Below, piece by piece: positions 1 through 56,665 of a DNA stretch of 64,000 nt. Position 1 is the stretch's first letter; every line of letters starts with the position of its first letter. The stretch spans positions 51,410,019-51,474,018 of the forward strand of contig CM049306.1 in assembly GCA_026874595.1 (NCBI GenBank), given 5' to 3'. The notes under the pieces were generated by a model. The model did not search any database. It had not been told where the DNA came from and saw nothing but the letters and a program-made list of their open reading frames with translations. The stretch comes from Sipunculus nudus (Eukaryota; Annelida; Sipuncula; Golfingiida; Sipunculidae). The translations under genes were made by a program, and so were the position numbers.

Positions 1-1260
1 CTTTGAAAATATTTTCATAAACTCACAGATTAATTCTAAAAGGTTTGCTGCAATGCAGGAATGGGGCATAGACCTATTTAACTATTATGAAATTAAAGCC
101 ATAACTTGTATTCTATTGAAGTAAGGCAACAGAACCAATACCTAAGTAAACAAACTACTTTTACAATATTATCAACCTTACTGAGGAAGGTCAAGATCAT
201 TTTTCACATGCTGAAATAACTACACTTTAAAGCTCTTGATTAGATGTTTGGTGTAATAGATATTATAAATGAAGCAACCATCAAAGTTAGGCTGCCAACC
301 AATGACAGACGCCACGGCACTCTCTTACAAGTTTCAGATGTACCAGAATGTTGCAAAATATAAATGTTGGTTTTTGTTATGAAGTTTTACACATCATATT
401 GGGCCGTTGGTCCCTCTTCAGCTTTCGTGTCATAGTATGTGATATTATATCTAAGGTTATGAGGACAACAGCCAAATTTCAATGGGCACCTACTGGTGGA
501 ACAGACTATAGACAAGTTTTCTAAAATAAACAACCCGCCACATATTTGACAAAATAGGCTACGAAATATGTGAGAAGGATTGAGAAGTGAGAAGGAGAAA
601 ACTTTGTGACCGAACAAAAATCTAGATATGTTTTATGTATATTTTTAAGTTTATATTATTGTCAAGTGCACATCTGTTTCCAGATGTGAATCATATCTCG
701 TGTTTTGTGGGAAAAATTAATTAACCACTGGCTGTTAATATGTCTACGTTAGCCTGTTGCCCTAGTCGCAGAAGCTTTCGATAAAAAATATGGCCGCCAG
801 ACGACAGAAAATAATCATTGAACTGACATTGATTTGATATGCGAATGAACGTGAAAGGTTCTATGGTAAATTCGCAACAAAATGCCACATTCCATTAATA
901 TGGGCATACAATGAGAATTACTGAGGTAAATAAATTGCCACTCATTTGCATGAAACCATTTATCATTAGTTAAGTCAAATGATCCTGACATTTATCTGCA
1001 CCTTCAGAGTAGCAAGATATTACTTATGTCTATACCGCCTTGATTTCAGACACAAGATTTATAAAGAAAAATGTGTACTGGCTCTGTGTTTAAAAATCGC
1101 CCATAAGTGACACTTTGAATTCGTATTAGTCTCTGCATGTATTTGCAACGTGTTCGAGTATTATTGAAATTGTCTCTTTTATATTTCATTTTCCCCCGAT
1201 TCACCTTTTACTGCAACATAAGTCATAAACTAATTGTTTTTTCCTTTTTCTAAATTGCAG
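1..1260. other. Intron or upstream flank without recognised gene
   Basis: No exon of the receptor gene was recognised here. A 76-codon open frame on the - strand (387-617) has no visible homology, and I do not support it as a gene. Confidence 0.5.
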
Positions 1261-1287
1261 CCAGGACAGATTCCGTGGATAATAGCG
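1261..1287 (+). CDS. Micro-exon 1 (27 nt linker)
   Basis: The acceptor taaattgcag ends at 1260 and the donor gtgagt starts at 1288. With one base borrowed on each side it reads xRTDSVDNS and then G. It has the same phase (1-1) and position before a CUB module as the micro-exons at 3341 and 8463. Its existence rests on this pattern. Confidence 0.55.
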
Positions 1288-2712
1288 GTGAGTTTATGTT
1301 GATACTGCAGTTTTGTCCATTACGCATACAGGGTTTCCATTGAAAATAAGTGTATTGTGTCATGTTCATAAAAACGTTGCTTGACCACTCCCTGCTACAT
1401 CTGAAAACCTTCCCATTCACACTCAAAGGACAAAGCATTTATAAGCATATATTTAAGACAAAATACTTAAAGAGACAATAATACCGCAGCTTTACGTTCA
1501 ATTGGAAAATCCTTGATATCCTGTAAAAGTTAATACTTTATACACGTTCTGTAAGACAACGATAAATTGAACATGAAGTTTCGATTATAAACTTGTAAAG
1601 GATTGCAAGTTTACGGAGTCAATCAAATTTAAAGAATCAAATGTAAACAAAACACTGTTGACCCTATGGGGCACGTTTGTATGGCTTTATTTGAAAGGTC
1701 ACATTCTTGGGGCACTCACAGCAATACTAGAAATAGCACAAGACGTTCTCCGGCAGCCGCGTAGAACAAGTGTATCGAGCAATTTCATTAGTCTTATTTG
1801 TCATGTATTCATGAAACAGATACCAGAGCTGATCGATGAATAAAGGTCTTCTAAATCGTAGCTTCAGAGGCTTGATAGTACGAAGGTGCTCTTTAAAGGG
1901 GGGGGGGGGGGGGGTTACTGCGAACTCGCCTGCTCCTTTGAACAGACATATATGTCTGAAATAATGCTGCTTGTATTATGTTCAGGCTGCAACAAAACCT
2001 TCATCCAGCCGACGGGGGAAATAACAAGTCCGTTCTACCCCGCCCCGTACGATCCAAGTATGAAGTGTAACTACACCATCCTCATGTCCAACCCGACTAG
2101 AACCATACAGTTAACCTTCGTCCATCTTGATATGGAGGAGTGCTCTAACTGCCAGTGTGACAGCGTGAAGGTGAGATTTTAGCTTATTACAGAAATAAGT
2201 CTTCCAAACATATATATCATTTATTAACGAACCGGTTATTCTCAAAGAAAACAATGTTACAGGTACAGAGTCAAGTTTTAATCGTGAAATCAGTTGTTTA
2301 CGAAACTGAAATGCTAGATAAAGAACTGTTCAAATAGTTTAATCATTGACTGAACAATATTCATGCATGATATTCAGAATGATAAATATCCTGAGATAAA
2401 GAAAATTACTAGTTTATTATCAGGGAAAAATAAGCAATGTTATTCATTCAAGAAATGTATACCTCTGCGATACTTCTTCGTTACGAAACAAGGAAATATC
2501 ATAAATAACGTGGCGTTTTGTGTACACCATATTACGTTGGGTATTCATAGATCGCATCGCATATATTGAAGTTAAAACATGTTCTAAAATATCTGATCGC
2601 AGAAGAACGTGGGTTTATTTATACACGTGCGCGCAGCTTAACAGCGTGTAAACATAACACTACATCGGCGTTCCATATAGGGAAGTGATCACAGATGTAT
2701 CACAGAGGTTGC

Positions 2713-2800
<88 letters not shown>

Positions 2801-5800
2801 CTGACTTTAGCAACGTCTTCATCCTTTAGATATATGATGGTTCTCCTGCCAATAAACTCCTTGACATTTATTGCGGAAAACTTGATATCCCGCAAGTGAT
2901 TCAGTCAACGGGACCATTAATGACTGTGGTCTTTTCTTCGGATTATGTGCAGGGCGGTATCGGGTTTAGAGCTCTTTGGAACGGTTAGTAATTGCTCCAA
3001 GGTTTACGTACCATTTGGTTACATATTAAGATACTAGTTCTAATCATTATATACTATCCTTTAATGTTCTAGTTCAGACACATAACAACTTTCAGGATAT
3101 TGAGCTTGTATGTATGTAAAGTCATCAAGTAATGGTATCTTTTAACTATTCTCATTCAACACTCAAAGAAATTTCCATTATCCGTATGTTTATTTGCAAA
3201 TACATTATCGGTCTAATGTAAACTTAATTATAAAGAGAATTCATTCACTGAATTTTACGAAAAACCATTAAACAGATAAGAGGAGCATAGTCGTGCACTG
3301 TCGATTCATATTAATAATTTATTTTAAAATTTATTTGTAGAAACCTTTCTTGAAAAATTACCCCCTTCCGGTAAGTCGCATGTTATCAACACGAAAAAAT
3401 CAGCATCGTTAATATCGTTACATATTTAAGAACTTTATTCAGATATCTCCATTTAATTTATAAATGAATTCAGATTCCTAACAAAATTTCTCCATATTTC
3501 TAGGCCAGTACAATTAATGGGCATAAAACCAGTAGGAATATACTATATATTATGTTTTGACCATCTTTGACAACTGAATGTGTTTACTTTACATTAATTT
3601 TAAATTGATATTTTGTTCTTTGAGTGACTGATTAAAAAAAAAAAACTATTGAGGTTTGTCTTGATCTAATTTGTGACGTCTTTATACTTGCGATACACAG
3701 TGCTTGAAGTTCAAAGGTTATAAGTTTGGAATGTAATATATACAGGCAGATTTAATATCCATATGTTGATGGTTAACGTTAATATAAAAGTGTTGGGAAA
3801 GGACCGAGAATTTATTGTGATGACTGTTCAGGAGAGAAAAGGTAATTTTTTGTTCATTCAGTGTATTAGGTTTACATTAATTTTTGTGAAATGCCTTTTC
3901 ACTCAGACTGCAACTCGACCATGGGGTCTGATTTTCGCCTTGTATCGGTGCCTCGTTCTAAAGGAAAGTACTTGCCGAATCAAGATTGTTACTACAATAT
4001 CAACATCCGTAACGACCGGAGAATAATCCTTGATATAGAGGTTTTTAGGCTGGAAGGCGGAGGGTGCAATTTCGATTATATCCAGGTATTTAAACTTTCC
4101 CCCTGCAGTCTGTGTTATAAATTCTATAAACGCACATACGATAGAGAAAATTGTGTTTTTTTATAACTAGATATAAATGCATGAAACATTGTATCCCTGT
4201 GTGTATTTTACCTTTTATGCCCCCAATTATCATTTTTATGCCTAATTAAGAGAGAGAGAGGCTTATATAGGGGTTGATATACCCCAATCTATAATATTAT
4301 AAGCTACATGGTCTGTGCGGGCACTCCATATCTCTGATCACATGAGGGTAACCGGGGTGGGGGGGGGGATGGTTGTTTGTTGAAAGAATATTTTGATGTA
4401 TTTAATGCAGTAAACAATGTCTCTGTTATATTTAAAGATTTTCGCAAACAATTCCGAAAGGTCGATGTTACGGCTCTGTGGCGAAGGCTTTGACAGAGTT
4501 GTGGTGCCATCTAGCGGCCTCTTACTGCACTTCCATTCAGATTCAAGCATTCAGTTTTATGGGCTTGATGCAACCTGGAGAGGTAAAATCTTGAATCGTT
4601 CAAATATGGATAGCTTTATCGCAATTCTGTTTCGTGTAATAGGTACATTAACCTGTGTTGATTAAATAAGGCCAAAATAAAAAAAAGGTATTGTTCTAAG
4701 GCACTTTTTTTTCAGAAACCAGTGCGGGCGGGCGATATTTTATTTTACGTTTTTTTAGCTCAGCTGACTGAAAGTCATCTGAGCTATAGCGATCACTCTT
4801 TGTCCGTCGTCCGTCTGTCCGTCTGTCCGTCTGTCCGTCCGTTAACCAGGCACAAATCGTAACCGCTGGACCTAGAACCTTGTAACTTGGGATTCTGAGA
4901 GGTCCATAAAAAATCTCCTTGGAAACCAGAAATTAGGTCTCTGTTACCCATATCCTTCGAGCTATGTGGCCCCAAAGTACCCCCCAGAAAAGTCAAAAAT
5001 TTCATACAAAAACTTCAATATCTCATTAACTACTTGACTGATGGTCATGATTTTTGGCATACATATTGATCATGAGATGTTACATCACTTCCTGCAGACT
5101 GGTGGCGCCACCTGTATTTTTTTATTTTTTACGAATTTTTTTCTCTATTTTTGAGACCTCTAAAAATGTGAACATCTGTTAACAAGGCACAAATCATAAA
5201 GACTGGACTTAGAATCTTAATTCTTGACACACTGAGAGGTCCATGAAAAATCTCCTTGGAAACCAGAGATTAGGTCTCTGTTACCCATATCCTTTGAGCT
5301 ATGGGGCCCCAAAGTACCCCCCAGAATAGTAAAAAATTTCATACAAAAACTTCAATATTTCAATAACTACATCACTGATGGTCTTCATTTTTGGCATACA
5401 TATTGATCATGAGATGTTCGATCAGTTCCTGCAGACTGGTGGCGCCACCTGTACTTTATGATTTTTTACGATTTTTTCCTCTATTTTTGAGACCTTTGAG
5501 GATGCTGTCATCTGTTAGCGTGGCACAAATCGTAACGACTGGACCTAGAATCTTCATTTTCGACACACTGAGAGACCTATGAAAAGTCTCCATGGAAACC
5601 AGAAATTAGGTCTCTGTTACCCATATCCTTCGAGCTATGGGGCCCAAAATTACCCCCCAGAATAGTCAAAAATTTCATACAAAAACTTCAATATCTCATT
5701 AACTACATCACTGATGGTCATGATTTTCGACATACATATTGATCATGAGATGTTTCATCAGTTTGTGCAGACTGGTGGCGCCACCTGTATTTTTCAATGT

Positions 5801-8800
5801 TCACGAATTGTTTTCTCCATTTTTGAGACCTTTAAGGATGTAGTTATCTGTCAACAGGGTACAAATCGTAAAGACTGGACCTAAAATCTTCGTTCTTGAC
5901 ACACAGGGAGACCCATGATAAGTCTCCATGGAAACCTGAAATTTGGTCTCTGTTACCCATATCCTTTGAGCTATGGCACTCCAAAGTACAGCTCAGAATA
6001 ATGGAAAATTTGATACAAAAGCTAAAGTAACTGAACAACTAATGCAGAGATAACCATATTTGTTTGCATGGATATTGATCATGGAGTGTTTCATAAGTTT
6101 CTGCAGACTGGTGGCACCACCTGTATTTGTTCGTTTTTTTTACGAAATTTTTCTGTATTTTTGAGACCTTTAAAGATATGAACATCTGTTAACAGGGCAC
6201 AAATCATAAAAACTGGACCAAGAATCTCCATTCTTGACACACAGGGAGACCCATGAAAAGTCTCCATGGAAACTTGAAATTAGGTCTCTGTTACCTATAT
6301 TCTTTAAGCTGTATGGGTCCAAAATACCCCCCCCCCAGAATAATGGAAAATTTGATACAAAAACTGCAGTATTTCAATAACTACAACACTGATGGTCATG
6401 ATTTTCGGCATACATATTGATCATGAGCTGTTCCATCAGTTTCTGCAGACTGGGTGTGCCACCTCTATTTTTTTTCAAATTTTTACGAATTTTTTTCTTT
6501 TTTTTGAGACCTTTAAAGATGTGGTTATCTGTCAACAGGGTACAAATCGCAACAACTGGACCTAGAATCTTCATTCTTGTCATGCAAGGAGGCCCATGAA
6601 AGGTGCCTGTGGAAACTTGAAATTAGGTCTCTGTTACCCATATCCTTCAAGCTATAGGACTCCGAAATTATCCCTCAGAATAATGGACAATTTGATACAA
6701 AAACTGAAGTATCTGAACAACTAATGCAGAGATCACCATGATTTTTTGCATGGATATTGACCATTAAGTGTTTTTATTAGTTTCTGCAGACTGGTGGAGC
6801 CGCCTGTATTTTTGTATCCACCAAAACGAAGTTTTGCGGATACTATGTTTTTGACCGAGTTCCTCCGCCGCGGCGGCGTTCGTTTCCAGAGAGCTCCTTG
6901 GAGACTAATGGACCGATTTTTCCCAAACTTACATCTATTATCGGGTCACATGTGAACTGGTGCCTAACCAATTTGCATTGACCTCTGACCTTTCCTCTCT
7001 ATCCAGTGTCCATTTGTGGGTCTGTTTCCACTCATAAACCCTCATATCTCGGGAACCGTTTGACCGATCAGGAAATAAAATTGATACAAATGTAGCCCTT
7101 GGATTGCTTTATAACATACACAAAAAATGGTGGCGCCACCTGTAACCATGTTTGCACAGTGTCCATCTGTTCATCTGCCTTGGGTTAAAATCACTCATAT
7201 CTCTGCAGTGAATTGACTAATTCACCTGAAATTCGTCATGTGTATACATCCAGGATAGCTTTCTTGATTTTATGACAGGTGGCGCCACCTACTTTCACGT
7301 TCACGCTGATGACATCCAAGCTTATATCTCGGGAACCGTTTGACCGATCAGGAAATAAAATTTATACAAATGTAGCCCTTTGATAGCTCTGTAACATACA
7401 CAAAAAATGGTGGCGCCACCTGTAACAATGTTTGCACAGCGTCTGTCTGTTAGTCTGCCGTGGCCTAAAATTACTCATTTCTCTGTAGTGGTTCGACATA
7501 ACTGCCTAAAATTTTGCAGGTTTATACATCGTGGACAGCTTTCTTGATTTTATGACAGGTGGCGCCACCTACATTTTAGTTAACGCTGGACACATCCAAG
7601 CTCATATCTCAGGAACCATTTGACCGATTGGGCCAAAATTGTGCATGTGTTTAGATCTCACATAGGTCTTTATCATACACAAAACTGGAGGGGTTACCTG
7701 CAAAGATTTTTGCACAGTGTTTGTCTGTTTGTCTGCCATGGGCAAAAATCGCTCATATACATGTAGTGGTTTGACTTATCTGCCTAAAATTTTGCAGGTG
7801 TATACAACTTGGACAGCTTTCTGGATTTGTGGTAGGTGGCACAACCTACATACACATTTAGGCTGCAGAAATCCATGCTAATATGCAACATACCTCACTC
7901 TATTTCCCCTTGCCACTCAATCCATGCCTCACTATCCGATTTTGGCAGATACATGTAGTCACTTGTCGGTTACCCGTATTCTAGTTTTAAAAGTTTACAC
8001 ATTTTTCTCTATTTTTTAGATATATAAATACAGACTAAATCTTGGCCTGTTGGTTAATCTGTTTGATGCTTCAGTTGAATGGGTATATACTACCATTCTG
8101 ATGATAAAATTTCCTTTTGCGAATCTCTTCCCAGTCAGCTGAGCGTCATGACCCATGGGTCACTTGTTGTATATTTCGATAAAATTGTCATATGATCAGG
8201 GAAAAGCATGAAAATAACATAATTGTTTTGACAAACAGGCAAAAGCAATAACATAACAAAGGAAATCTTATCAAAATTGTATTATTTTATCTGGGGGGTT
8301 AAAAAATTGAAACGGGCGGTGCCTGAAAACCATACCGTTTATTTTTTTGGCCCAATGGGAAATATGTGGTGCTTTTTGTGATCTGTTTATAATGGCCTAA
8401 TGGCTATATGTAAACAATATAGAGATGACGTATGTTAAATGTAAGTTCACATCACTTTTCAGGAGTGGAAACTAAAGGACCCCCTTCAGGTAATGTCTTT
8501 TGTATTACACATGCCGCCTTTATACAGAAATCGTAAAATACATATACAGTGTATATTGCGGTAGGTATTTAATTCAGAATACTTTTAAGCTGATGTTATA
8601 TATTCTCACTTTAACGTATATATATATATATGTATATACATATAATCGTTCCCTTAAACCTCTTACAGGAACATGTGCCAAATAAACCTGCAAAAGTTAT
8701 AGTATTCGTGTCAGATGTATTTATTATTGCATGCAGTGGCGTCAATTTATCTTCCCGGGAGGGGGGGGGGGGGGTAACTTGCACACGCTCACACAAACAT

Positions 8801-11456
8801 TCACACACATATATACCTTTTTAGCGTCTGTGTGACACATTTCAAATATGTATCCACTTAATCTCATATCAAATATTTAAGTATAAGGTTTAAGAAAAAT
8901 AAAACTGTTTAGATATAATATTTCATTACTCATAAACGGAACCAAAATCTTAAGGCCTGATTCTATATTTAAAATATTTAAGTATAAGGTTTAAGAAAAA
9001 TAAAACTGTTTAGATATAATATTTCTTTACTCATAAACGGAACCAAAATCTTAAGGCCTGATTCTATATTTAAAATAATTAAATATATTTTTCTGTAAAA
9101 GTTGCCAAAAAGTTTGTGGGGGTATATACCCCCCCATACGTACACACAAACACACACACATATATACCATTTTAGCGTCTGTGTGACATATTTTAAATAT
9201 GTATACACTTTATCTCTTTTCAAATATTTTAAGTATAAGGTTTTGGAAATAAAAAAAACTGCTAGATATAATATTCCATTACTCATAAACGGAACCAAAG
9301 TCTTAAGGCCTAATTCTATATATATAAATAATTAAATATTATTTTCTGAAAAAGTTGCCAAAAAGTGTGTAGGGGATATATACCCCCTCCCCCACACCCC
9401 TTTATTGACGCCCCTGATTGTATGGAGGGATCATCTTTCTGTGACAAAGATTAGTCTTTTGCGCCTCACTTTAAAATAGTTTAAGGTATCATTATCAATA
9501 AGACCAAGAGTTTTCATTTAAGAATATATAAAGTATCTTAACATCGTAGAGGAAACAATCATGGTTTCCAGTGAGAACGACTGTTCTTTAAAATTTCTAA
9601 AGAAAACACCTTTAACCCGTGTCCTGAAAGCATAATTAGATAGGTCCAACCGAAATGCCACTAATGCTGCGACTAGGAAATAAAAGTTTTGTCTTGTTTA
9701 CTACAAATGCTATCCTTTGTTCTTTCAATTTCAGACTGTGACGTTATAAAGATAGGAAGTGCAAAGACAGATAATATCATTTTTTCGCCTGGATATCCAA
9801 ATTATTATTACGGGGGATTAGAATGCAGCTACAGGATTGTAAACGAGGATAAGCACACAAGCATCAGAGTTGTATTTCTGGAATTTCAACTCCAAGACAA
9901 CATTAACTGCTCTGCTGACTTGGTCAAGGTTTGGGGTTTGACTGTTACTTTTAAGCGTACTTACTGGTCTACACACATACACACACAAACACAAACACAG
10001 ACACGCACCAATATTGATATAAGGAGCTTATAATATTCTCTGTATTTGAATACACATATAATTAATTACGTTATAATATCCATAGGATATTTAAACTATC
10101 ACACATTAACGGATTATATGTTAAGAGTTTTTTCCTTATGACAAAGTTGTTGAAGAAACCGAGAAAGTTCGGCTTGGAAGGCTGACCCTTATTTCTTCAA
10201 CAATTTATATGCGTTAACTATACAGTACTTAACAGGAATATAGAATTAGTTTTTCTGTTGTTATACCTGGTCATACCGATGTAGTTTCGGTTGTTAAGGT
10301 TTTCGGGGACTCAGGAGAGCAGGAGGTATCGTTGGGGAAGTTCTGCGGACGCCGAGAGCCTTTTAACGTCACCGGGGAGAAAGGCGCAGACATCATTGTG
10401 AAAATGAAAACGGACAACACCTGGGAGATGAAAGGGTTTCTCGCAACATGGATAAGTTGGTTTAAAATCTATATACAATATCTAAAATTGTATTTTAAAA
10501 AATAAATATATTTAATTTTCCGTAACAGATTATGGTTGCATATTAAGGTAGTAAGAGCTATACTCATTGCACTAAAAAAATTCTGTTAATATTAAGTTCG
10601 AGGTGATTTTTTAATTTTATAAATATAAATATAGAAAATAAGTAACAAGTTCTTTTAATTCCCTATTAAAGTGAAATTACTTTTGCAGCGCCGGCTCTAA
10701 TAGGAAAGGCTATCATGGTTTTTAAAGATAAGTGTAAACTTTTTTTCAGCAATCTGCAACAGATTGACATACACGGTCTGTGTTGATATGAGACGCATTG
10801 CAGTTATTGATACCTCCGCCAGGTGGCGAGAGGCATTGGTTTGCTTGTGTGTAATTTTACATAAACGCTCTTAACAGATTTTGAAGAAATTTTGTGCAGG
10901 ATTAGGAAAAATCCCGAGGAATGCTGCTTGGAGATGACCAGCCAATTGAGTCGTTGAACGGTGCAAGCACTTCCTTGTTTAGCTTGCTTAAAAATTTTGT
11001 TTGTTTTTAAGGTATAGACACCTCAACGGAAGTGCCTTCCGCACTCATCAACACGGTTCTCGTAGCTCAATCAGGAGACGACAGTCCAAACTGTGGCACG
11101 GAATATCCATGCAGAACCTTAAAGTGAGTGAAATTTTTATACACATATTCTATCACAATATTAGAAAGGTTATTGTTCTACTCGCAGTCATATAAGGTAA
11201 TTTCTTTTCTTAAGGAAAATTGAAATTTAACAGTTTTGACAGTGTTTCAGTGAAACGAAACCACCATAGTTTAAATACATATTTATTTTATAATTTCAAA
11301 GATAAAATATAACATCACAATATATTAACAAAAATAAAATACACGTATCACATATATTACAGGGTTGAGATATTTGTCTGGGAAGTATATCTTCGTTAGA
11401 AGCCCCTTTTGATATTATTAATAAGATGCATCAGATGGCATCAGTATAAGGTAGAT

Positions 11457-11511
<55 letters not shown>

Positions 11512-14500
11512 CAGAGAAATCACAGAGGTTCTTTAGAACGCGTATGATTTTCTTCCTTTTTTTTGTTTTCCACACATACAGGACGGGGCTGGATAGGGTA
11601 TCTGATGGCGGTACGGTTGTTGTGGATGCAGAAGATACGAACTTCAACATTGAGATCCAGGGCATCTTCACCAGGAGCGTCTTAGTGCGCGGTGAAAACG
11701 GAAATGTCACCATTAACTGTAATAAAGTGAAACTTGTGGGAAACGAGTCCAAACAAATAACTGTGGAATTGCGGTCTGTGACACTTAAAGGAGACATTAT
11801 AGCAATGAATACCAATTTAACGCTACTCGGAGTGAAAACAGAATATTTTTATCTTAACATCAAACGAACCTTAGCCGTGGCGTCTCGTAAGGGTTTACTA
11901 AAATGTAGAAACTTCGATCTGCACATCCTGAATTCTGTACTTGAAGGTGCAGTAGAAACTTTATGTGAGCAAAGAGAGGGCTGTCGTCCTGTGTTTGCGT
12001 CAATAATAGACGGCACATGTGATAACTTTGTATTTGTCAGCCGAAGATCGATATATGATACAATACAAATATTTCTTAAAGGAAGGAATTCAACAGATAT
12101 CTTTCTCCAAGGTGTGAACTTCCAGAGAACAAGAAACACGAGTGCTGAAACGGCATCATATGGCGTGTCATTTGAACTTGGGGAAACTGAAAACACGGTT
12201 TTTGTCCGTGACAGCCAGTTCTCGGGACAGGTCGGCAACAGCTATTTCGGAGCGGCTTTGTCGATCGACAACCCGAAATATGACGAACAGGAAACCAATA
12301 TAAGGATACTGGACACCACTTTCACGGGGAACAGGAGGGCAGTGCAAATGAACCTGAGAGGTAAAAACGAGGTAAGGATTACTCGGTGTAGGTTCATTAA
12401 CAATACCGCGTATGGATCAGGAGGTGCCATCCGGGTCGCTCAGAGCCCAAATAGATATTTACCAGATAACAACGATGAGTTCATCAAACTGGCGATAACT
12501 GGATCTTTATTCTTGAAAAACCGCGCCACGTCGTATACATTCACAAGCAGCGAAACCAATCAAAACCTAACGGCAGCTGGAAGCGGTGGCGCAGTTGACA
12601 TGGATGTGCAGACGAGAACTTTCCCCAATACCAACCTTAATTTGCAGGAGTGCACTTTCGACGGCAATAGCTGCAGTCTGTACGGTGGTACGTTACACTT
12701 GAACAAACAAGTGGCGGCTCAGATCACAGATTCAAATTTTACCAATTCCAACATCAATACAGATCATGCTCTATTTGGAGATTTTATTCAATCTGGGGGT
12801 TACATTAAACTCAGTGGTGTCAATTTTCATGTTGTCAGTGTTTTTGGCGCGGGTACTTCACCGTTGATCAGCTTCAGTACCCAGCAATCCGATGGCTTTC
12901 TGTTCCCCCAGAATATTAGTCTGTACTGCCCAAAGGGTTACGAAATTACCAAATTTAAAAGTTCAAAGGCATTTTCGACAGTAAGGGCTTATCTTGAGCG
13001 TTTAACACTGGGTTGTTTGGCCTGTTCACGTGGCTCATATAGTCTCATCGATACGGAAATTTCACTCAGTTCTGCGTCCATTAAACGTCTACAAGATGGG
13101 ACATTATATAACGCTGAACTGCTGGAATATGACAAAAACCTTCAATGTTTCGATTGTCCATACGGTGCTCAATGCTTGGGAGCTGCGTCGATTTCAACTA
13201 AACGTGATTACTGGGCGGCCCCGAACACAGTCGTCGTAAAGCCGCACAAATGCCCTGAAGAATATTGCTGTGAAAGCGGTAACTGTAAGTTGGATCAAAT
13301 TTGCAACGGTGAAAGAACAGGTGTTCTTTGCGGACGTTGTAAGCCTGGTTATTCCGAAGCCTTGTTTTCTGAAGACTGTATAGAAAATTCCCTCTGCCAT
13401 CAGTACTGGGTGGTGAGTCTCATCCTGGTCTATGCGCTCCTGTATCTTGCTTTCTTTATGCTGGACGACGAAAGACAAAGATGGTTTGCGGGCAAATGCA
13501 GGGAAGGAAGCAGTGAACCTAATGACACTGGTTATTTCAATATATTTATGTACTATGTCCAGACTGCCCCGCTGCTTAAAGTAAACATCCCAGACAGCAC
13601 AGTTAATAGCAACCCGCTCTACCCCATGAAAAAAGCTGTCAAGAACTTTGTTAATTTTGCTGCTTTCGCTGTGCAGTCGCGCACCTGCTTTCTCCCGGAT
13701 CTCACCCCCGTTGTCAAAATCGGTGCGCAGGTCAGCGTTGTTGTGCTAATGTATATTATACTGGCTATCATGTACCTGTTTACACTTTGCATGTCTTGTA
13801 AGAGGAAAAACAACCAAGAAGAAGAAAGCGATAAGAAAGCAAATACTGGTTGCCGTTCAATCTTCAGTAATATCAAATTCAAGACCCGTCTCCTACTGAC
13901 ACTGATATCACTGATCATTTATACATTTGAGAACGTAGCCGAAAGCACTTTCACTCTCCTGAACTGTACCTTTGTGGATGGTGTACAGGTGCTTTTCCTG
14001 GATGGCAATGTCACATGCTTTGACAATATATGGCAGTGGGTGCTTGTTGGTGTTGCCGTGGTAAATATAGCTCCTTTGTTCGTTTCTCTTCTGACTGCAC
14101 CTTCGTTACTCAAAGCTCGGAAGACAACGGTTACCATAGTTGTGTTTTCTTTTATATTTCCAATCATATTTGCCCCAATTTTCACCGTGAAGTATGTTAA
14201 GCATTTCAGAGAAATCAATCACCAAAAGAAAAGCCAGGATGATAACCACTTGCAGACTGATGATGGGATAGAAAAATCCAACGAAACATCTGACCAGGTG
14301 GTGGATCTGTTGACTGGGCCGTACCGTAAAGAGATTCTAGGGGGACTGTGCTGGGAGGGACTCATGATCATGCGCCGTCTGGTAATGGTTTTGTTTTGGT
14401 CTTTCATCACAGACCGAATGATCAGACTGAGTGCCATGTTTGCTTTTGGCCTGGCGTGCCTCGTCCTCCATCTGGGTTTGCGTCCGTTCCTCATGCCGTT

Positions 14501-14930
14501 CTCAAACGTCCTGGAAGCAGGCTCTCTCACGTTGCTGCTGTGTTTAACAGCCGTCGGTCTCGTTAAAGCAACACTGTTTGAGCTGCAGACGCCATTACAA
14601 GGTGGAAGTGTCAATCTGATCAATGTCTATGAGTGGTTTGAACTGTTATGTGTCGCGGTAGTACCGATAGTCATAGTGACTTTCATAGTCCTGGTACTAC
14701 TTTTTAGAATCATACGTGGCTGTTGCTTGGGTGGTCGGCAAAATAGCCAACCGGAAAAGTTCAGTGACCATCGCACCAACCATATGGCCCGACTAGGCTC
14801 GCCACAGGATGTTGTATTCAATAGAAATACAAATGGAGCAGGCAGGAGATCATATACTGACGATGACTGGTTCACACGTGGTTATGCTCCTTTTCGTCCT
14901 GGGAATATTACAGGTTCACACGCTTTTTGA
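1261..14930 (+). CDS. CUB / beta-helix / polytopic membrane receptor-like gene (5' partial)
   Basis: Exons read by eye: 1261-1287, 1986-2170, 2830-2983, 3341-3370, 3907-4085, 4438-4582, 8463-8489, 9735-9928, 10299-10455, 11012-11123 and 11582-14930 (stop TGA at 14928). All phases agree: micro-exons are 1-1, the first half of each CUB is 1-0, the second half 0-1, the 11012 exon 1-2. The 5' end lies before the window, since exon 1261 needs one base from an earlier exon. The product has three CUB domains, a short spacer with a PCRTL motif, a beta-helix, a Cys-rich zone and about nine membrane helices. This suggests a cell-surface protein with a large extracellular part and a short cytosolic tail. 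I do not recognise a named orthologue. Similar beta-helix plus polytopic architectures occur in uncharacterised invertebrate proteins. Ligand and role are unknown. Confidence 0.8.
1986..2983 (+). CDS. CUB module 1 (exons 1986-2170 and 2830-2983)
   Basis: The first exon encodes the start of a CUB domain, with the hallmark SPFYPAPYDPSMKCNYTI and a second Cys cluster ECSNCQCDSVK. The second exon supplies IYDG, DIYCG and the closing GGIGFRALW. All expected CUB landmarks are present: an early Cys, SPxYP, CxYxI, DxVxIYDG, YCG and GFxAxW. CUB domains are extracellular beta-sandwiches that bind proteins or glycans, often with calcium. The Asp in CDSVKIYDG would suit a calcium site. The intron holds an (AT)n tract at about 2717-2800. 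Confidence 0.85.
2717..2800. repeat. (AT)n microsatellite
   Basis: Nearly pure alternating AT/TA in an intron between the two exons of CUB module 1. Similar tracts occur at about 11460-11510, 16135-16200, 22958-23000, 29586-29641, 30168-30210 and 44715-44752. Confidence 0.95.
3341..3370 (+). CDS. Micro-exon 2 (30 nt linker)
   Basis: The acceptor ttatttgtag ends at 3340 and the donor gtaagt starts at 3371. It is phase 1-1 and reads ETFLEKLPPS, joining the W-N end of CUB 1 to the D-C-N start of CUB 2. The PPS ending is shared with the third micro-exon. Confidence 0.7.
3907..4582 (+). CDS. CUB module 2, divergent (exons 3907-4085 and 4438-4582)
   Basis: It reads DCNSTMG at the start, then KYLPNQDCYYNINI, GGGCNFDYIQ, and in the second exon LRLCGEG and IQFYGLDATWR. 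The fold landmarks are kept (Cys pairs, DYI, LCG, final W), but SPxYP is lost and the calcium-type acidic residues are weaker. This CUB therefore probably diverged in binding. Phases 1-0 and 0-1 match modules 1 and 3. Confidence 0.75.
4800..6830 (+). repeat. Tandem array, six units of about 337 bp
   Basis: The landmark ttgatcatgagatgtt and its variants recur at about 5071, 5408, 5744, 6080, 6422 and 6761. Each unit also has a phrase like aaatctccttggaaaccaga and, soon after the landmark, ggtggcgccacctgta or a decayed form. Short open frames inside the array are chance products of the repeat. Confidence 0.85.
6900..7880 (+). repeat. Tandem array, about three units of 280 bp
   Basis: The phrase ctcgggaaccgtttgaccga recurs at about 7047 and 7329, and as a variant at 7607. 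Each unit carries two palindromic GGTGGCGCCACC sites, one in atggtggcgccacctgtaac and one in acaggtggcgccacctac. Confidence 0.8.
8463..8489 (+). CDS. Micro-exon 3 (27 nt linker)
   Basis: The acceptor cacttttcag ends at 8462 and the donor gtaatg starts at 8490. It is phase 1-1 and reads GVETKGPPS, joining TWR of CUB 2 to DCDVIKIG of CUB 3. It sits just after the nested repeat that fills the preceding 3.9 kb intron. Confidence 0.7.
8734..9416 (+). mobile_element. hAT-like MITE, copy 1
   Basis: The ends are CAGTGGCGTCAATTTATCTT and, inverted, CAGGGGCGTCAATAAAG. The flanking 8-mers attgcatg (8726-8733) and attgtatg (9417-9424) differ by one base, fitting an 8-bp hAT target duplication. Inside is a direct duplication of about 97 bp (about 8870-9070) with a third diverged copy near 9230. 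G-runs and C-runs lie next to both ends. It sits in the intron before CUB module 3. Confidence 0.7.
9735..10455 (+). CDS. CUB module 3 (exons 9735-9928 and 10299-10455)
   Basis: The first exon reads DCDVIKIG, SPGYPNYYYGGLECSYRI and CSADLVK, a canonical CUB start. The second exon reads VFGDSGEQE, KFCGRREPFNV and GFLATW, the expected CUB end. The phase-1 end (base a at 10455) joins to gt at 11012 to give Ser. This makes a direct join to the spacer exon without another micro-exon. Confidence 0.85.
11012..11123 (+). CDS. Spacer exon leading into the beta-helix
   Basis: This 112 nt exon (acceptor tttttaag, donor gtgagt, phase 1 to 2) encodes a stretch with NTVLVAQSGDDSPNCGTEYP and then CRTL. The pattern 'SG.D....CG....PCRTL' is typical of the opening strand of extracellular beta-helix proteins, where the two Cys usually pair. 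It joins in phase to the large exon (K-T-G-L-D-R-V-S-D-G-G). Confidence 0.75.
11582..14930 (+). CDS. Final exon: beta-helix, Cys-rich zone and about nine membrane helices
   Basis: An uninterrupted 3349 nt exon. About 11590-12900 encodes a right-handed beta-helix rich in N-glycosylation sites. It contains FTGN, CRFINNTAYGSGGAIRV, GSGGAVDMD and CTFDGN...YGGTLHL, the FxxN and GGA(I/V) pairs known from Pmp-type beta-helices. About 12920-13400 is Cys-rich, ending with GVLCGRCKPGYSEALF. Hydrophobic helices fall near 13408-13465, 13720-13795, 13885-13930, 14037-14100, 14127-14190, 14350-14410, 14425-14482, 14509-14570 and 14635-14706. A basic and polar tail follows. The sequence before 11582 is open but intronic (acceptor cacacatacag). 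The polytopic region is not a rhodopsin-type receptor by any motif I can see; a channel-like or adhesion role is conjecture. Confidence 0.88.
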
Positions 14931-27539: not shown

Positions 27540-27975
27540 ACATCTCGATAAGCAATCAGCAAGTACATTGTCTTTCCCTTTAATATGTATGATATCAAGA
27601 TTGTAATCCTGTAAGAACAAACTCCATCTCAACAATCTTTAATTTTTACACTTCAACTTGTTCATGAACGTGAGGGGATTGTGATCACTGAAGACAATGA
27701 TAGGCCGGACTGATGAAGTAACATAAACTTCAAAATGTTGCAACGCAAAATCAAAGCCAAACATTCTTTTTCAATAGTGGAGTAGTTTTTCTGGTTTGCA
27801 TTAAACTTTCTTGAGAAATAACAAATTGGATGATCTATGCCATCATCGCCTTCTTGTAACAACACAGCACCAGCAGCAGTGTCACAAGCATCCACAGCTA
27901 ACTTAAAAGGTACAGAAAAGTCTGGAGCTGCTAAAACTGGTGAACTTTGCAGAATTGCTTTCAAATTAGTCTTAA
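27540..27975 (-). pseudogene. Gypsy-type RNase H remnant
   Basis: Read on the - strand it carries AVDACDTAAGAVL, then ICYFSRKFN and YSTIEKECLALI, the RNase H region of gypsy-type polyproteins. A frameshift near 27740 moves the rest to another frame, which ends with a block like [13 protein letters not shown] near 27560. Together with the adjoining purine tract and LTR it is the 3' end of one element. The rest of the polyprotein is absent, so it is a truncated and inactive copy. Confidence 0.75.
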
Positions 27976-29019
27976 GAATTTAGAACTAAAAGTGACATAA
28001 TTCCGTGTTCTTTCTTTTAAGTTATGAAGCAAGTCTAAATTATTGCTTTTTTTTCAACAAAATCTCTTTTACGTATTTCTATAAGAGTTTGCATTATAGA
28101 CACTTGGTTAAATATGAAATTTCTTTCAACAATTTAGTTTTTTAGTTTTTTAATTAATTGAGATGCATTTCATTTTAATGTGTGTAACATATCATTGAAA
28201 TTTTAACATTTATGATTTGCAGAATAACACCTGACAATTAAATTACATTCATATTTGCCAACAAATTTTCAAAAACATAAAAATTTACAATTTTCTGCAG
28301 ATAAAATGTTGAACTAGTTGATTAATAATTTTGAAAATTTATATGCTGAACATAAGACAACTTAAAGTAGCACAACAATGGTGAGGAATAATTTGACAGC
28401 GCTTGAGTCCTTATATCAGTAGATGGTTTGCATCTCATATGTGAGCTCTGGTTTTGTGTCCATACATGATCATGCAGAGCCTCAGACGAGCCTCAGAGCC
28501 TCACCTCTTAGCTCAGAATATTACGGTAAGTAAAGTCTGTTTAACTAAACTGGCACCTGCTACCCCCGTAGGTTGTTGTTTCAGTAATTTACCATACCAT
28601 GCACTGATTACATATTGATCATTTTGAATTATGTTAATGTGATGTCAAAAATAGGTGTAAATATACAAGCAACATAGGATGCTATATAAGACTATTGAGA
28701 CTATACCGGTAGATATGCATCTCAAAGGCAAGACCGATAAAATTCATGATTTAACATATATTTGTATATATATATATTCATCATTGTTATCCTAAAGAGC
28801 TGCTCTAAATGAAATCTTGTTCGAACAAACACTTGAACAAACACTATCGAACTTTGGGAGTGGTAACGCCCAGGGGGGAGAGGAAAAAAGCACTTCGATA
28901 TGATAATGAAATTTACCAAATGTTAGTGATAGTACTAGATAAATATTATATTTATTATAAATTATAATGTGAAGAACAATAAATATTTGCCTAAGCCTCC
29001 TATTTGTCATTCCATGATC
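27976..29019. other. No recognised gene
   Basis: AT-rich. It has one short degenerate direct repeat (gagcctcagacgagcctcagag, about 28475-28500), and I see nothing else to annotate. Confidence 0.5.
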
Positions 29020-36126: not shown

Positions 36127-36519
36127 ATGTACTTGAGCCAAGCATCTTCATGAAGAGCGGCTGAAACCTGGGAGCCGTGTGGATATCTTAATGACAAGAA
36201 TTGGTTGGAGACCAATCACTCGGGCCCTAGTACTATGTATTGTCACCTCCGCCTTCATCTCTCTGTATCTAGGACTTGTACAGCTCAGTGGCAACTGCAG
36301 TGTCACCCCTTCAGGTGACAAAGTGAAACGAGAGTTACAAGACACGCGCTCCACAACCACAGAGGAAAAGCCAGAGAGTGGCCACAAGCTAGCTGTAGTA
36401 GTGCCAGTACGAGACAGATTTGAAGAGCTACTAGTTTTTGTACCACACATGCACAATTTTTTAAAAGCGCAAAATGTTGACCATCACATTTTTGTTGTAA
36501 ACCAAGGAGATTCCCTAAG
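36127..36519 (+). CDS. B4GALT7: B4GALT7 first coding exon (with 5' UTR)
   Basis: The acceptor ggtttcttttcag ends at 36126. The exon carries 64 bases of 5' UTR, then ATG 36191 and the membrane anchor, stem and first catalytic block. The donor gtaagg starts at 36520, phase 2. An upstream non-coding exon is implied by the acceptor but not located. Confidence 0.85.
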
Positions 36520-39500
36520 GTAAGGAAAGTGGAAAATAAATCTAGCAAAACATTTTAATACCATGTATAATTCATTGTTCCCTGAAGAGTACAACAATAG
36601 TGTCCAATACTGAAAATTAACAGAAGAAAAGGGGATGTGAAACCCAATAGATAAGCAAAACTTTCAAATCAGAAGCTATTACATTAAATGCAGATATTTC
36701 ATTAATAAAAATATAAAAGTGTGTCTTATCAGGTTTGCAAGTATATCTCATCCTTTCAGTCAGTTAAAGCACATAAATTTTGCATTTACAAACTGTTCAC
36801 CTCCATGAATTGCATTTAAAAGGTTATAAACATTATCTGCATCATAGAGAATACCTCATTCATGTAACTTTCAATTTATTTTAAATATCTTTGATTTTCT
36901 GATGTACAGAAACTCTTAAGCTGTGTTTCCGTGTGTATGTATATATGCATGAAAAACGCTCATGATTTTGTAACTGTGGTGTGTTCATCTGTCCATCAGT
37001 ATATACCCCATATATGCAGTTAGTTTTTGTGTAATGGTTCACCAGTACATCCGTCTGTCAACTTCCTAACAATTCTGAGGGCCTAAAATATGTTTCCCAA
37101 ATAGAGGAAATAAATAGCTTCTTTTAAGAAATAATTCTGAATAAGTTTGAAATTTTGCTATGAAGAAGCAGCCACTCTTAATGGTGTAAGAACAATTATA
37201 AATAATATTATCCAAAAGTTCCAACAGTATTAGAAAAAACAGCTTATGATCTTCATCTTAAGAGCAGGTGATACAAAACAAATGTTGTTATTCAAATTCC
37301 AGAAAGATCTGCAAATTAATACCTTTGATGTAACTTATTCGAAGGGTATATCAGTGTTCACTAACTCACTATCAATGCCAGACAATTGTACATCATTATC
37401 CACATTGTTACTTAATCACAAGTAAGGGAATTCAAGTTTTCCAGGGGACATTCATCATACCATGACCAAGGAAAGGTTCTATATTTTACAAAGTGAAAAC
37501 ACATTAATTAATGGAAAAAAATATATAAAAAAAAAATCTAGTTTATACTTGTAAAATAGTATGATGTAAAAACTTTGGTAATAATGTAGTGCAGGTGACC
37601 TGCCTAAAACAAATCTAATTACTGATAACCTGACCTTAATATTCTTGCTCCCACATGGAGCTTGCTTTATGCTCCCATCAGCATGCACAATGCACAAAGT
37701 TTTATAAGATTCATATGAAAATAAAACAACACCAAACTTGATTCAAATAAAAAAATAAGTATGAGTTATGTCAGTTTGTTTCAGGTCGGCTGTCCTGCGC
37801 TTTTACCAGAATTTTTCTATTTTCGGTATATTTTACTATCCAGTACTTCATATGGATCTAAGTATTGATGAAACCCTTTGTTATATCCAGGTTTAACAGA
37901 GCAGCACTGATCAATATAGGATACCTAGAGAGCAGACAGGAGTGTGACTACATAGCAATGCATGATGTGGACCTGTTGCCTTTAAACAACAAGTTAAACT
38001 ACAGCTACCCGGAGGACGGTCCCTACCATGTGGCTGCTCCTCACTTACATCCACTGTATCATTACCCTACATTTGTTGGAGGTATTTTACTCATCAGGGG
38101 AGACCATTTTAAAAAGGTGTGGATCAAGATGTATTCATTTGTCATTTAAGATGTAGAATTACACGTTGTTTGTTTATCTGTTTAAGATTTCAAGATATCC
38201 AGATGAATACAAATACAATAAATACTAGAACCAGTAAGTTTTAATAAAAGAAAGTCAGTTTATCATGTCTTGCACATGAACAAGCAAGAACCTACATTAA
38301 TCTGGGTATGTTTTATTCTATCCCTGGAGATATCATAAGGTTGGTAAAAACATTTAACTCAGGGATTTATAAATTTGAGCTGTATTTTTTTACCATGTCA
38401 ATCAGTCATTGTTAGACACCTGGCATGCTTGACAATGGATTAGTGGCAGATCCCAGGATCTACAACCAGTTGTTGTCACATGATCCTGTAGGTCATGTGT
38501 CAACCCCTGAGCTGTGCTGTTGTCAGGCACATCAATCTGTAGCCATGACAACCCTGCTCAGTAGGCAATAATAATTGGGCTGGTAAGCCTGCTTGAGTTG
38601 TGATACAAGCAATATCGAGGAATGCATCGCAGTGGTCTCCTATCATGTTGCATTCATTTTATTGTAAACAACCCATAATCTTAACATTATGCTACTAATG
38701 ATGCAATAATGCAAGAGAATACAGTGAACTCACAACCGAAACTGATACCCTGTCTCTATGGTAATGAGTCATTTCCTGTATCAGGTACAAGTTTACAGCC
38801 CCCAGTAACCTGTGCGAGTTATTTACCAATATGCTGAGTTAGAACAAAACTTTTCTCATTCATGTTTGCTGTTGTTAGAAAGTACACTAAAAATCTAAAG
38901 ATGAGTCTGGTCTATGTGTATCTGTTGGCCATGAGGCATTATCAGATATGACAAAAATATTTGCATCCCCATGCAGCCTTATAATGCATTCTTCAGACCT
39001 AGATGTAAAGGCACTCTGGCAGGCCAGAAATCAGGCCATGATGTCAGAGGGCCGATATGGAGCTTATCAATCTGCTTATGATAACTGTGTGATATGGTTT
39101 AAAGCTATAGCTACAAAAATGTCCTTTAGTTGAGAATTTTTATATGCCCATATATCATGGGACTTATAATGGTATACCCGCCGTCTGTCCGTTAACTTTA
39201 TGTGTCCCCAAGATAACTTACCAGAGCTTTGATGGATTTTCACTAAACTCACTATAACTACTAACCAAAAGATAATCTTGCTCGAGTTTGATTATGGGCA
39301 AAATCCATGCATATCTAATAAGGTCAGAGGTCACTTAGCTACTTTGTGGTGTCGCCATGATAACTTACGAGGAATATGATGGATTTTCATAAAACTCAAC
39401 AGATATGATAATCAGTAAAATATCTCACCTTATTTAAATTCTTAGCAAAAGTCATGGATATTTAATAAGGTCAGAGGTCTGATGGATTTTCATATAACTC

Positions 39501-49600: not shown

Positions 49601-49771
49601 CTAATATATTGCGTGTGATAATGTAATGGGATTTCTGCAGAACAGCTCAATTGTTGTTCAAACGTTTCTCTTGGCACAGCCTACGATAAGGCATCCATCA
49701 GTCGCTCAGAAAAAAATATAACAGCTCCCAACGTCCTGTGTACAATTAAGTCGGAAGGGGTGGGTGAGGAG

Positions 49772-49934
49772 ATGGATCGCAGGATTTTCCTTGTGGTAAT
49801 AATTCTGCTGGCCAGCCCGGCGTTTTCCGCAGACAATGCAGAAATATGCGAGGAAGGGTTCTACGGTAAAAACTGTGACCAACTTTGTGATGGTGGTTGC
49901 CTGGGATGTAACCGGACCACAGGCATTTGTACGG
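49772..49934 (+). CDS. Multiple-EGF protein, first exon (unit A): signal peptide and first EGF-like repeat
   Basis: ATG 49772 encodes MDRRIFLVVIILLASPAFSA, a signal peptide likely cut after Ala20. A repeat of the MEGF/scavenger-receptor-F type follows: CEEGFYGKNCDQLCDGGC, then NRTTGIC. The donor gtaaga is at 49935, phase 1, as expected for 1-1 EGF exons. It differs from the unit B exon at nine of 54 residues with no damage. No second exon is visible before unit B, so it either starts a gene fragment or is an alternative first exon for the exons from 61212. A GTG 12 bases upstream in frame is less likely to be the start. Confidence 0.65.
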
Positions 49935-50348
49935 GTAAGAAACAGGTTATATTATTCATGAAGAAAACCTTGTTCTCTTCTTTATACGTTCTCTTCTTTA
50001 TACACTCAATAAAGGTAAAGCAATGCTGGAGGTTTAGAAGGGATAGAAATATTGTTAGAAATTTATAAACCTACTTTCATTGCCTAAGTTTTCAAGATGT
50101 CATCCAGAACATCCTCAACATAAATTTAAAACGTTATATGCAAGGTCCAAATACTTTTCTGCCTCTGAATTTGATAGCTACCCATTATGAATATTGTAAA
50201 TTGATTACATTTCTTTACGACAGTAGGCCAAGGCCACACAGCTGCCTGTTCTACAGCCCGCTCAGTCCATTTATAATTCCAGCAGAGTATGCCTTTAATT
50301 ACAGATAGAAAACACTAAGTTACACAGAGGGAAAACGCAGTTTATGTC

Positions 50349-56200: not shown

Positions 56201-56502
56201 TAAAGTAAGAAATATTTTCACACCTTAGACATATCACATTATCATGAGGAAATAGTCCATAAAAATAACAGTTTCCCCCAATTTATGTCTGCTCGTTTAA
56301 ATTTACATCCAATATCCATCATCAACTTTAAATATATTGTGTGTGATAAAGTGGAATTTCTGCAGAACAGTTAAACTTTCGTACAAACGTTTCTCTTGGC
56401 ATGGCCTATAATGAGGCATCCATCAGCCACTTAGAAAAAAAAAATAAAACAACAGGTCGCAATGTCCTGTGTACAATTAAATGGGAAGAGGTGGTAGAGG
56501 AT

Positions 56503-56665
56503 ATGGGTCAGAGGATATTCCTTGTGGCCATAATTCTGCTGGCCAGCTCGGCGTTTTCCGCAGACAGTGCAGAAGTTTGCGAGGAAGGGTTCTACGGTGA
56601 ATACTGTGACCAACTTTGTGATGGTGGTTGCCTGGGATGTAACCGGACCACAGGCATGTGTACGG
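56503..56665 (+). CDS. Multiple-EGF gene, first exon (unit B)
   Basis: ATG 56503 encodes MGQRIFLVAIILLASSAFSA and an EGF-like repeat ending NRTTGMCT. The donor gtaaga is at 56666, phase 1. The frame is open upstream to 56401, but the unit A exon aligns only well from this Met, and the upstream part lacks a signal peptide, so I choose 56503. Confidence 0.7.

What the first reader, a model, noticed from the sequence alone, without database searches (positions are those of the whole stretch)
1261..14930. Receptor-like gene joining CUB domains, a Pmp-like beta-helix and a nine-helix membrane region
The reading shows three CUBs spliced in phase to a 3.35 kb exon with beta-helix, Cys-rich and about nine hydrophobic segments. 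CUB domains with a polytopic C-terminus are not a standard receptor class I can name. This makes it the best candidate here for an undescribed surface system, possibly recognition or adhesion.
Basis: partly seen in the sequence, partly recalled or inferred. Interest (0 to 1): 0.75.

Follow-up and report, generated by a model that had tools for sequence, protein, structure and literature searches.

The report
Modular multipass receptor-like gene, peanut worm
A peanut-worm gene appears to encode a large cell-surface protein in which lectin-like and CUB binding modules sit on a core made of a beta-helix, a cysteine-rich neck and about nine membrane helices, resembling the layout of a protein family described in single-celled parasites.

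Summary
The window is Sipunculus nudus chromosome 1. The 11 exons from 1261 to 14930 splice in frame. Upstream of the window lie two exons of a C-type-lectin-like domain (just under Pfam's cut-off) and a candidate signal-peptide exon; the whole model reads 1,696 aa without interruption: signal peptide, CTLD, CUB x3, beta-helix, Cys-rich neck, nine or ten membrane segments, tail. The core is a real family: seven copies in this genome, 20-45% identical. No CUB or CTLD exon was found within 17-18 kb upstream of five of the six others; the sixth was not examined. The cores appear to be entered in phase 1, and the added modules are phase-1 bounded, so exon shuffling is likely. CUB plus multipass is not new in itself (ADGRG6). 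The closest published plan found is the protist CRMP family: Cys-rich, nine membrane domains, some with CLECT or beta-helix. Sequence kinship with CRMPs could not be tested. Best reading: a modular recognition/adhesion receptor. No transcript, structure or functional evidence was available.

The parts
1261..1287 (+). Linker exon (phase 1-1), joined upstream to CTLD exons at C1:51408065-51408232 and 51409659-51409961 and a candidate signal-peptide exon at C1:51397336-51397396, all outside the window
   Evidence: Lectin_C 20.4 bits, under cut-off 22.6; signal-peptide scan
1986..2170 (+). CUB1, first exon (phase 1-0)
2830..2983 (+). CUB1, second exon (phase 0-1)
3341..3370 (+). Linker exon (phase 1-1)
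3907..4085 (+). CUB2, first exon (phase 1-0)
4438..4582 (+). CUB2, second exon (phase 0-1)
8463..8489 (+). Linker exon (phase 1-1)
9735..9928 (+). CUB3, first exon (phase 1-0); weak donor gtttgg
10299..10455 (+). CUB3, second exon (phase 0-1); weak donor gttggt
11012..11123 (+). Exon with the linker and the N-terminal Cys-bearing segment of the core (phase 1-2)
11582..14930 (+). Core exon with stop codon: beta-helix, Cys-rich neck, membrane region, C-tail
11583..12926 (+). Pmp-like right-handed beta-helix (core residues 1-448)
   Evidence: POMP_repeat 17.8 bits, cut-off 15; motif shuffles; Beta_helix over cut-off in three paralogues only
12927..13409 (+). Cys-rich neck (core residues 449-609), 15 cysteines invariant in seven members
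13410..14723 (+). Membrane region (core residues 610-1047): ten hydrophobic segments, read as nine crossings and one Pro-rich, possibly re-entrant segment
   Evidence: inference
14724..14927 (+). Charged C-terminal tail (core residues 1048-1115), presumed cytoplasmic
   Evidence: inference

Best explanation
A single Sipunculus nudus gene encodes a cell-surface receptor: signal peptide, C-type-lectin-like domain, three CUB domains, Pmp-like right-handed beta-helix, Cys-rich neck, about nine membrane helices (N-terminus outside, C-terminus inside) and a short tail. The beta-helix/neck/membrane core is an older family with seven members found here. A phase-1 intron lies in front of the core, and phase-1-bounded CTLD and CUB modules were inserted there by exon shuffling, giving one member a longer binding arm. 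I propose that the CTLD and CUBs bind an extracellular or microbial protein partner, the beta-helix holds the arm off the membrane, and the neck passes binding to the membrane region, which pairs with a partner or signals. Shown by sequence: the exons and phases, the CUBs, the Pmp-like motifs, the paralogues. Supported, not proved: the CTLD and signal-peptide exons as part of the same transcript, and the topology. Inferred: shuffling as the route, ligand binding, signalling.
For: 14-exon model in frame, one stop, at the end; three CUBs at 192 bits; seven core members with 58 positions invariant in all seven, 17 of them cysteines; 7 of 7 cores entered in phase 1 with acceptors chosen by eye (six, this one); a stop in frame just before exon 11012 and no alternative first exon found in 10456-11011 or 11124-11581; one signal-peptide exon with a 9/9 donor in the 58 kb scanned, among three candidates; loop charges partly fit an outside beta-helix: TM3-TM4 net positive in 6 of 7, TM4-TM5 net negative in 5 of 7 with an invariant Cys pair and sequons in 3 of 7, TM9-TM10 net negative in 6 of 7.
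Against: No transcript evidence. The CTLD is under Pfam's cut-off and its best PDB row is E 0.023. Two CUB3 donors are weak. Loop charges do not all fit: the H6-TM7 loop, taken as inside, is net negative in this protein (with one sequon) and in the chromosome 7 copy, positive in the other five; the TM2-TM3 loop, taken as outside, is mixed and net positive in this protein. The membrane region matches no family over its cut-off, so signalling is a guess. In paralogues A and G the frame runs open upstream through a Met, so their acceptors and phases are not certain.
Confidence: 0.57

Rival explanations
1. Two genes: a CTLD-CUB protein ending near 10500, and a separate core gene with its own start.
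For: An ATG at 11544 in frame with the large exon is followed by a short hydrophobic run. Five paralogues show no CUB or CTLD within 17-18 kb upstream.
Against: The Cys-bearing start of the core is on exon 11012, which has no Met and a stop just upstream; no alternative first exon was found in 10456-11011 or 11124-11581, nor a strict one in 1-11011; phases fit the fusion throughout. The run after 11544 is a translated pyrimidine-rich acceptor tract.
Confidence: 0.13
2. An animal member of the CRMP superfamily of protists: a homologous nine-transmembrane core with exchangeable ectodomain, acting in a paired complex.
For: Same plan in the paper: Cys-rich domains, nine transmembrane domains, conserved core of two EGF-like domains plus the membrane part, CLECT and parallel beta-helix repeats in the domain legend (PMC9815656).
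Against: No sequence or structure comparison with any CRMP was possible. DUF7630 matches to the neck are all under its cut-off, and that model rings as weakly at four other places in this genome. The same plan could arise independently. The helix count here is nine or ten, not settled.
Confidence: 0.42
3. A multipass transporter or channel with an adhesive ectodomain, not a signalling receptor.
For: Invariant polar and Pro residues in membrane segments (Q660, R932, P860); a Pro-rich, possibly re-entrant segment; a LysE translocator match in one paralogue at E 0.014, under its cut-off.
Against: No channel or transporter family over its cut-off; fungal TRP gave no hit in this genome, in a search without a positive control.
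Confidence: 0.25

Closest known systems
CRMP family (cysteine repeat modular proteins) of apicomplexans, Chromera and Paramecium, with Dictyostelium homologues
   Same: Modular ectodomain, Cys-rich/EGF-like part before nine transmembrane domains, CLECT and parallel beta-helix repeats among the domains listed (PMC9815656: passages, section 6, part 1 of 2 of the Discussion).
   Different: Animal gene; CUB domains; a Pmp-like beta-helix fills most of the core ectodomain; tail about 68 residues against 565 and 478 in T. gondii. Sequence homology untested.
Chlamydial and trichomonad Pmp proteins
   Same: FxxN and GGA[ILV] motifs in a predicted beta-helix (motifs as in PMC10715098, passages).
   Different: No autotransporter match; trichomonad Pmps end in a transmembrane domain, often single (PMC6701047, passages), here nine or ten segments.
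Adhesion GPCR G6 (ADGRG6/GPR126)
   Same: CUB ahead of a multipass region (6v55 matches CUB1; the rest of the plan is recalled).
   Different: No GAIN/GPS or seven-helix family match at E up to 1.
Polycystin-1
   Same: CTLD in the ectodomain of a multipass protein (recalled).
   Different: No REJ, PLAT or polycystin channel match at E up to 1 in the window's part; its eleven helices are recalled.
Cubilin
   Same: Tandem CUBs; best solved match to the CUB part, 3kq4, E 2e-45.
   Different: Cubilin has no multipass region (recalled).

Membership tests
CUB domain proteins | Pfam CUB over its cut-off | tested here: met
   192 bits, three stretches, cut-off 21.4
C-type-lectin-like domain | Pfam Lectin_C over its cut-off | tested here: inconclusive
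   20.4 bits against 22.6, E 0.00087; best PDB row tetranectin, E 0.023; cysteine order read by eye against a recalled pattern
Ca-dependent sugar-binding C-type lectin | EPN or QPD and WND motifs (recalled) | tested here: not met
   QPM and WEP at these places in the translation (by eye)
Pmp-like repeat proteins | POMP or Chlam_PMP repeats | tested here: met
   POMP_repeat over cut-off in 3 of 5 cores scanned, this one 17.8 bits against 15; Chlam_PMP 19.7, under 20.6, here
Pmp autotransporters | C-terminal autotransporter beta-barrel | tested here: not met
   no such Pfam match at E up to 1; helical hydrophobic segments instead
CRMP family | nine transmembrane domains | tested here: inconclusive
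   ten hydrophobic segments; nine crossings is the reading preferred, but two loops do not fit by charge in this protein
CRMP family | two EGF-like domains just before the membrane region | tested here: inconclusive
   Cys-rich neck in 7 of 7; DUF7630 in 6 of 7 and DUF7631 in 2 of 7, all under cut-off
CRMP family | sequence or structural homology of the core | not testable with these tools
Adhesion GPCR | GAIN/GPS and 7tm_2 | tested here: not met
   no match at E up to 1 in core or CUB part
Polycystin-1 | REJ, PLAT, PKD_channel | tested here: not met
   no match at E up to 1 in core or CUB part
Fungal TRP-like (PF06011) | Pfam TRP match | tested here: inconclusive
   no match in this genome, and no control genome rang

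The most novel reading that the evidence does not exclude
Animals keep a CRMP-like family of nine-pass surface receptors built on a Pmp-like beta-helix, and the phase-1 intron in front of the core is a docking port into which recognition modules are shuffled. In the peanut worm one member has taken up a CTLD and three CUBs, each skippable in frame, giving a variable recognition arm on an ancient sensing platform that I found discussed only in protists.
Probability: 0.3. Interest if true: 0.72.

Novelty: new variant of a known kind. Interest (0 to 1): 0.5.

Why it matters
If the core is homologous to CRMPs, an animal would let the open question of how that membrane platform senses contact be tested outside parasites. 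Even if not, it is a clear candidate case of receptor building by phase-1 exon shuffling onto a multipass core, and it marks a core family whose membrane part no Pfam family covers over its cut-off.

Tried and rejected
Two-gene model: disfavoured by the place of the Cys-bearing segment and the missing alternative first exon. Recent copying of CUBs from clusters elsewhere: the 15 non-self rows are 29-42% identical and cover CUB1 and CUB2 only (82 of 139 candidates scored). Viral or prokaryotic relatives of the core: none confirmed in viral contigs (35 pattern matches) or prokaryote genomes; both rest on a few short patterns and are weak tests. PDB relatives of the core: none at E up to 1 for the single protein; two rows at E 0.053 and 0.3 for the profile, taken as chance. 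Pfam in the membrane region: EphA2_TM 19.7 bits, cut-off 28.9, and LysE 15.3, cut-off 25.6, both not believed. Fungal TRP: nothing, uninformative. DUF7630: weak and unspecific. Upstream modules in paralogues: as a control my exon scan found 4 of the 10 small exons of this window (two exact, one with a wrong left border, one two codons short) and one false one; in the paralogues it gave tandem repeats and a few unconvincing exons judged by eye, so modules could be missed. Signal-peptide exons of the paralogues: none for A, B and D, weak candidates for E and F, G not examined beyond 450 bases. Tree: this core joins the chromosome 7 copy at 98/98, but both are long branches and the program warns of it.

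Literature (listings of an open-access library, capped at 5-15 rows; searches had over 12,000 papers each): searches showed me no description of CUB or CTLD on such a core in an animal; this is not proof of absence. The PANTHER name 'G protein-coupled receptor-related' for such proteins is recalled; no listed paper held its number.

Full report
WHERE IT IS. The window is C1:51410019-51474018 of a genome of 1,426,538,692 bases in 153 contigs. Contig C2 is 98,497,835 bases long, exactly the N10 scaffold length printed for Sipunculus nudus, 1,426,776,655 bases in all (PMC10212961, passages). C5 (93,055,055) is 6,200 bases short of the printed N30 value and the total differs slightly, so this is probably a revised form of that assembly.

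GENE MODEL. The 11 exons from 1261 to 14930 have AG/GT borders and join in frame. Each CUB is split by a phase-0 intron and bounded by phase-1 introns; three short linker exons are phase 1-1. Upstream of the window two more exons encode a C-type-lectin-like domain: Lectin_C 20.4 bits, just under the 22.6 cut-off, E 0.00087. The recalled sugar-binding motifs are absent (QPM and WEP in place of EPN/QPD and WND), so calcium-dependent sugar binding is unlikely. In the 58 kb before the CTLD three signal-peptide-like exons with a phase-1 donor passed the scan; one, MCQLVTYVLLLATVVCSARA, has a 9/9 donor. With it the model is 1,696 residues with one stop, at its end. CTLD and signal peptide have no transcript support. 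No further CUB or CTLD exon was seen in the 60 kb upstream of the window.

ONE GENE OR TWO. Five of six paralogues start with two cysteines 5 to 7 residues apart before the beta-helix; the C5:24.1 copy does not show it clearly. In the window gene this segment (CGTEYPC) is on exon 11012-11123, which has no Met and a stop directly upstream in frame. No alternative first exon with hydrophobic start and suitable donor was found in 10456-11011 or 11124-11581, nor with stricter limits in 1-11011. An ATG at 11544 is in frame with the large exon, but what follows is a translated acceptor tract and the product would lack the segment. One gene is favoured; cDNA is needed.

THE CORE FAMILY. The membrane region found six places including itself; the chromosome 7 copy and the whole window core each found the same seven. 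Each has a large exon with an open frame of 1,092 to 1,201 codons. Pairwise identity is 20-45%; 58 positions are invariant in all seven, among them 15 cysteines of the neck and two in a later loop. No CUB or CTLD exon was found upstream of five paralogues (16.7-18.0 kb each). For the sixth only 450 bases upstream were held.

BETA-HELIX. POMP_repeat is over its cut-off of 15 in 3 of 5 cores scanned (17.8 here, 23.7, 17.3; 14.1 and none in the others). Chlam_PMP is 19.7 here, under 20.6, and over it in three paralogue stretches (22.2, 21.2, 29.7). Beta_helix has no match in the window core and is over its 25.9 cut-off in three of five paralogues (34.2, 28.5, 27.5). Two GGA[ILV] motifs occur in 7 of 7 cores against shuffle means of 0.03-0.05, reached by 0 to 5 of 5,000 shuffles; FxxN counts are 4-6 against 0.9-2.7, here reached by 196 of 5,000.

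MEMBRANE REGION. Ten hydrophobic segments can be drawn. Net loop charges: TM3-TM4 positive in 6 of 7; TM4-TM5, with the invariant Cys pair, negative in 5 of 7 and with sequons in 3; TM9-TM10 negative in 6 of 7 with sequons in 2; H6-TM7 positive in 5 of 7 but -4 here, with a sequon, and -9 in the chromosome 7 copy; TM2-TM3 mixed, +3 here. With the beta-helix outside, most of this fits if H6, which has the invariant P860, does not cross: nine crossings, C-terminus inside. Two loops of this protein do not fit well, so nine is preferred, not settled. Low TM1 scores of some members come from loop residues aligned into that segment.

PHASES AND ORIGIN OF THE ARM. In 7 of 7 members the exon that opens the core is entered in phase 1 (six, this one). 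I chose the acceptors by eye, and in A and G the frame runs open upstream through a Met. CTLD, linker and CUB modules are all phase 1-1, so insertion before the core would keep the frame, and so would skipping any module. CUB1 and CUB2 match other CUB exons of this genome at 29-42% identity only; CUB3 and the CTLD find no other relative at E 0.001. The gain is therefore not recent. The genome is rich in CUB exons: of 745 candidates 150 were scored, and all 150 matches are over the cut-off.

COMPARISON. CUB before a multipass region exists in ADGRG6 (6v55 matches CUB1; plan recalled), but no GAIN or seven-helix match was seen. CRMPs have Cys-rich domains and nine transmembrane domains, and their figure legend lists CLECT, Ephrin-receptor-like, EGF and parallel beta-helix repeats (PMC9815656: passages, section 6, part 1 of 2 of the Discussion). 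The authors suggest environmental sensing in free-living protists and predict pairing through the membrane domains. The likeness is of plan only. DUF7630 matches the same place of the neck in 6 of 7 members (E 0.0076 to 5.1; the seventh had it at 0.023-0.038), always under its cut-off, and it rings as weakly at four other places of the genome; I do not use it as evidence of kinship.

VERDICT. A real, intact, complex gene model, most likely a modular surface receptor; a new variant of a known kind. The main surprise is a Pmp-like, about nine-helix core in an animal, with seven copies, and the accretion of CTLD and CUBs through a phase-1 port. Function is inferred.

Noticed in passing
L010 about 7000-8046 (upstream of the window): A minisatellite whose unit of about 40 bases contains a copy of the intron/exon junction of the CTLD exon (tgttgtgtag, then GCTGCCCTGAGGACACT), so many decoy acceptors precede the true one (by eye).
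   Followed up: no
G000 C1:50.67-50.92 Mb, C17:22.14-22.20 Mb, C5:25.68-26.04 Mb, C2:24.48-24.52 Mb: Dense clusters of CUB exons. The C1 cluster lies about 0.5 Mb before the window gene and one core copy lies about 1.6 Mb from the C5 cluster; no closer link was seen.
   Followed up: no
window 36137-36520: Open frame that looks like part of a beta-1,4-galactosyltransferase 7 gene (pattern recalled).
   Followed up: no
window 49622-50065 and 56350-56748: Two similar open frames with a signal peptide and an EGF-like start, apparently tandem copies of a scavenger-receptor or MEGF-like gene (recalled pattern).
   Followed up: no
window 27665-27979, minus strand: Fragment like the RNase H part of a retroelement polyprotein (recalled pattern).
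   Followed up: no
L023 about 4543-6467: Tandem repeat that is open in frames of both strands (RRTTCTQGYPSVLF repeats), a minisatellite rather than a gene.
   Followed up: no
window 4841-6813: Tandem array of a 336-base unit, 5.8 copies, inside the large intron after CUB2.
   Followed up: no
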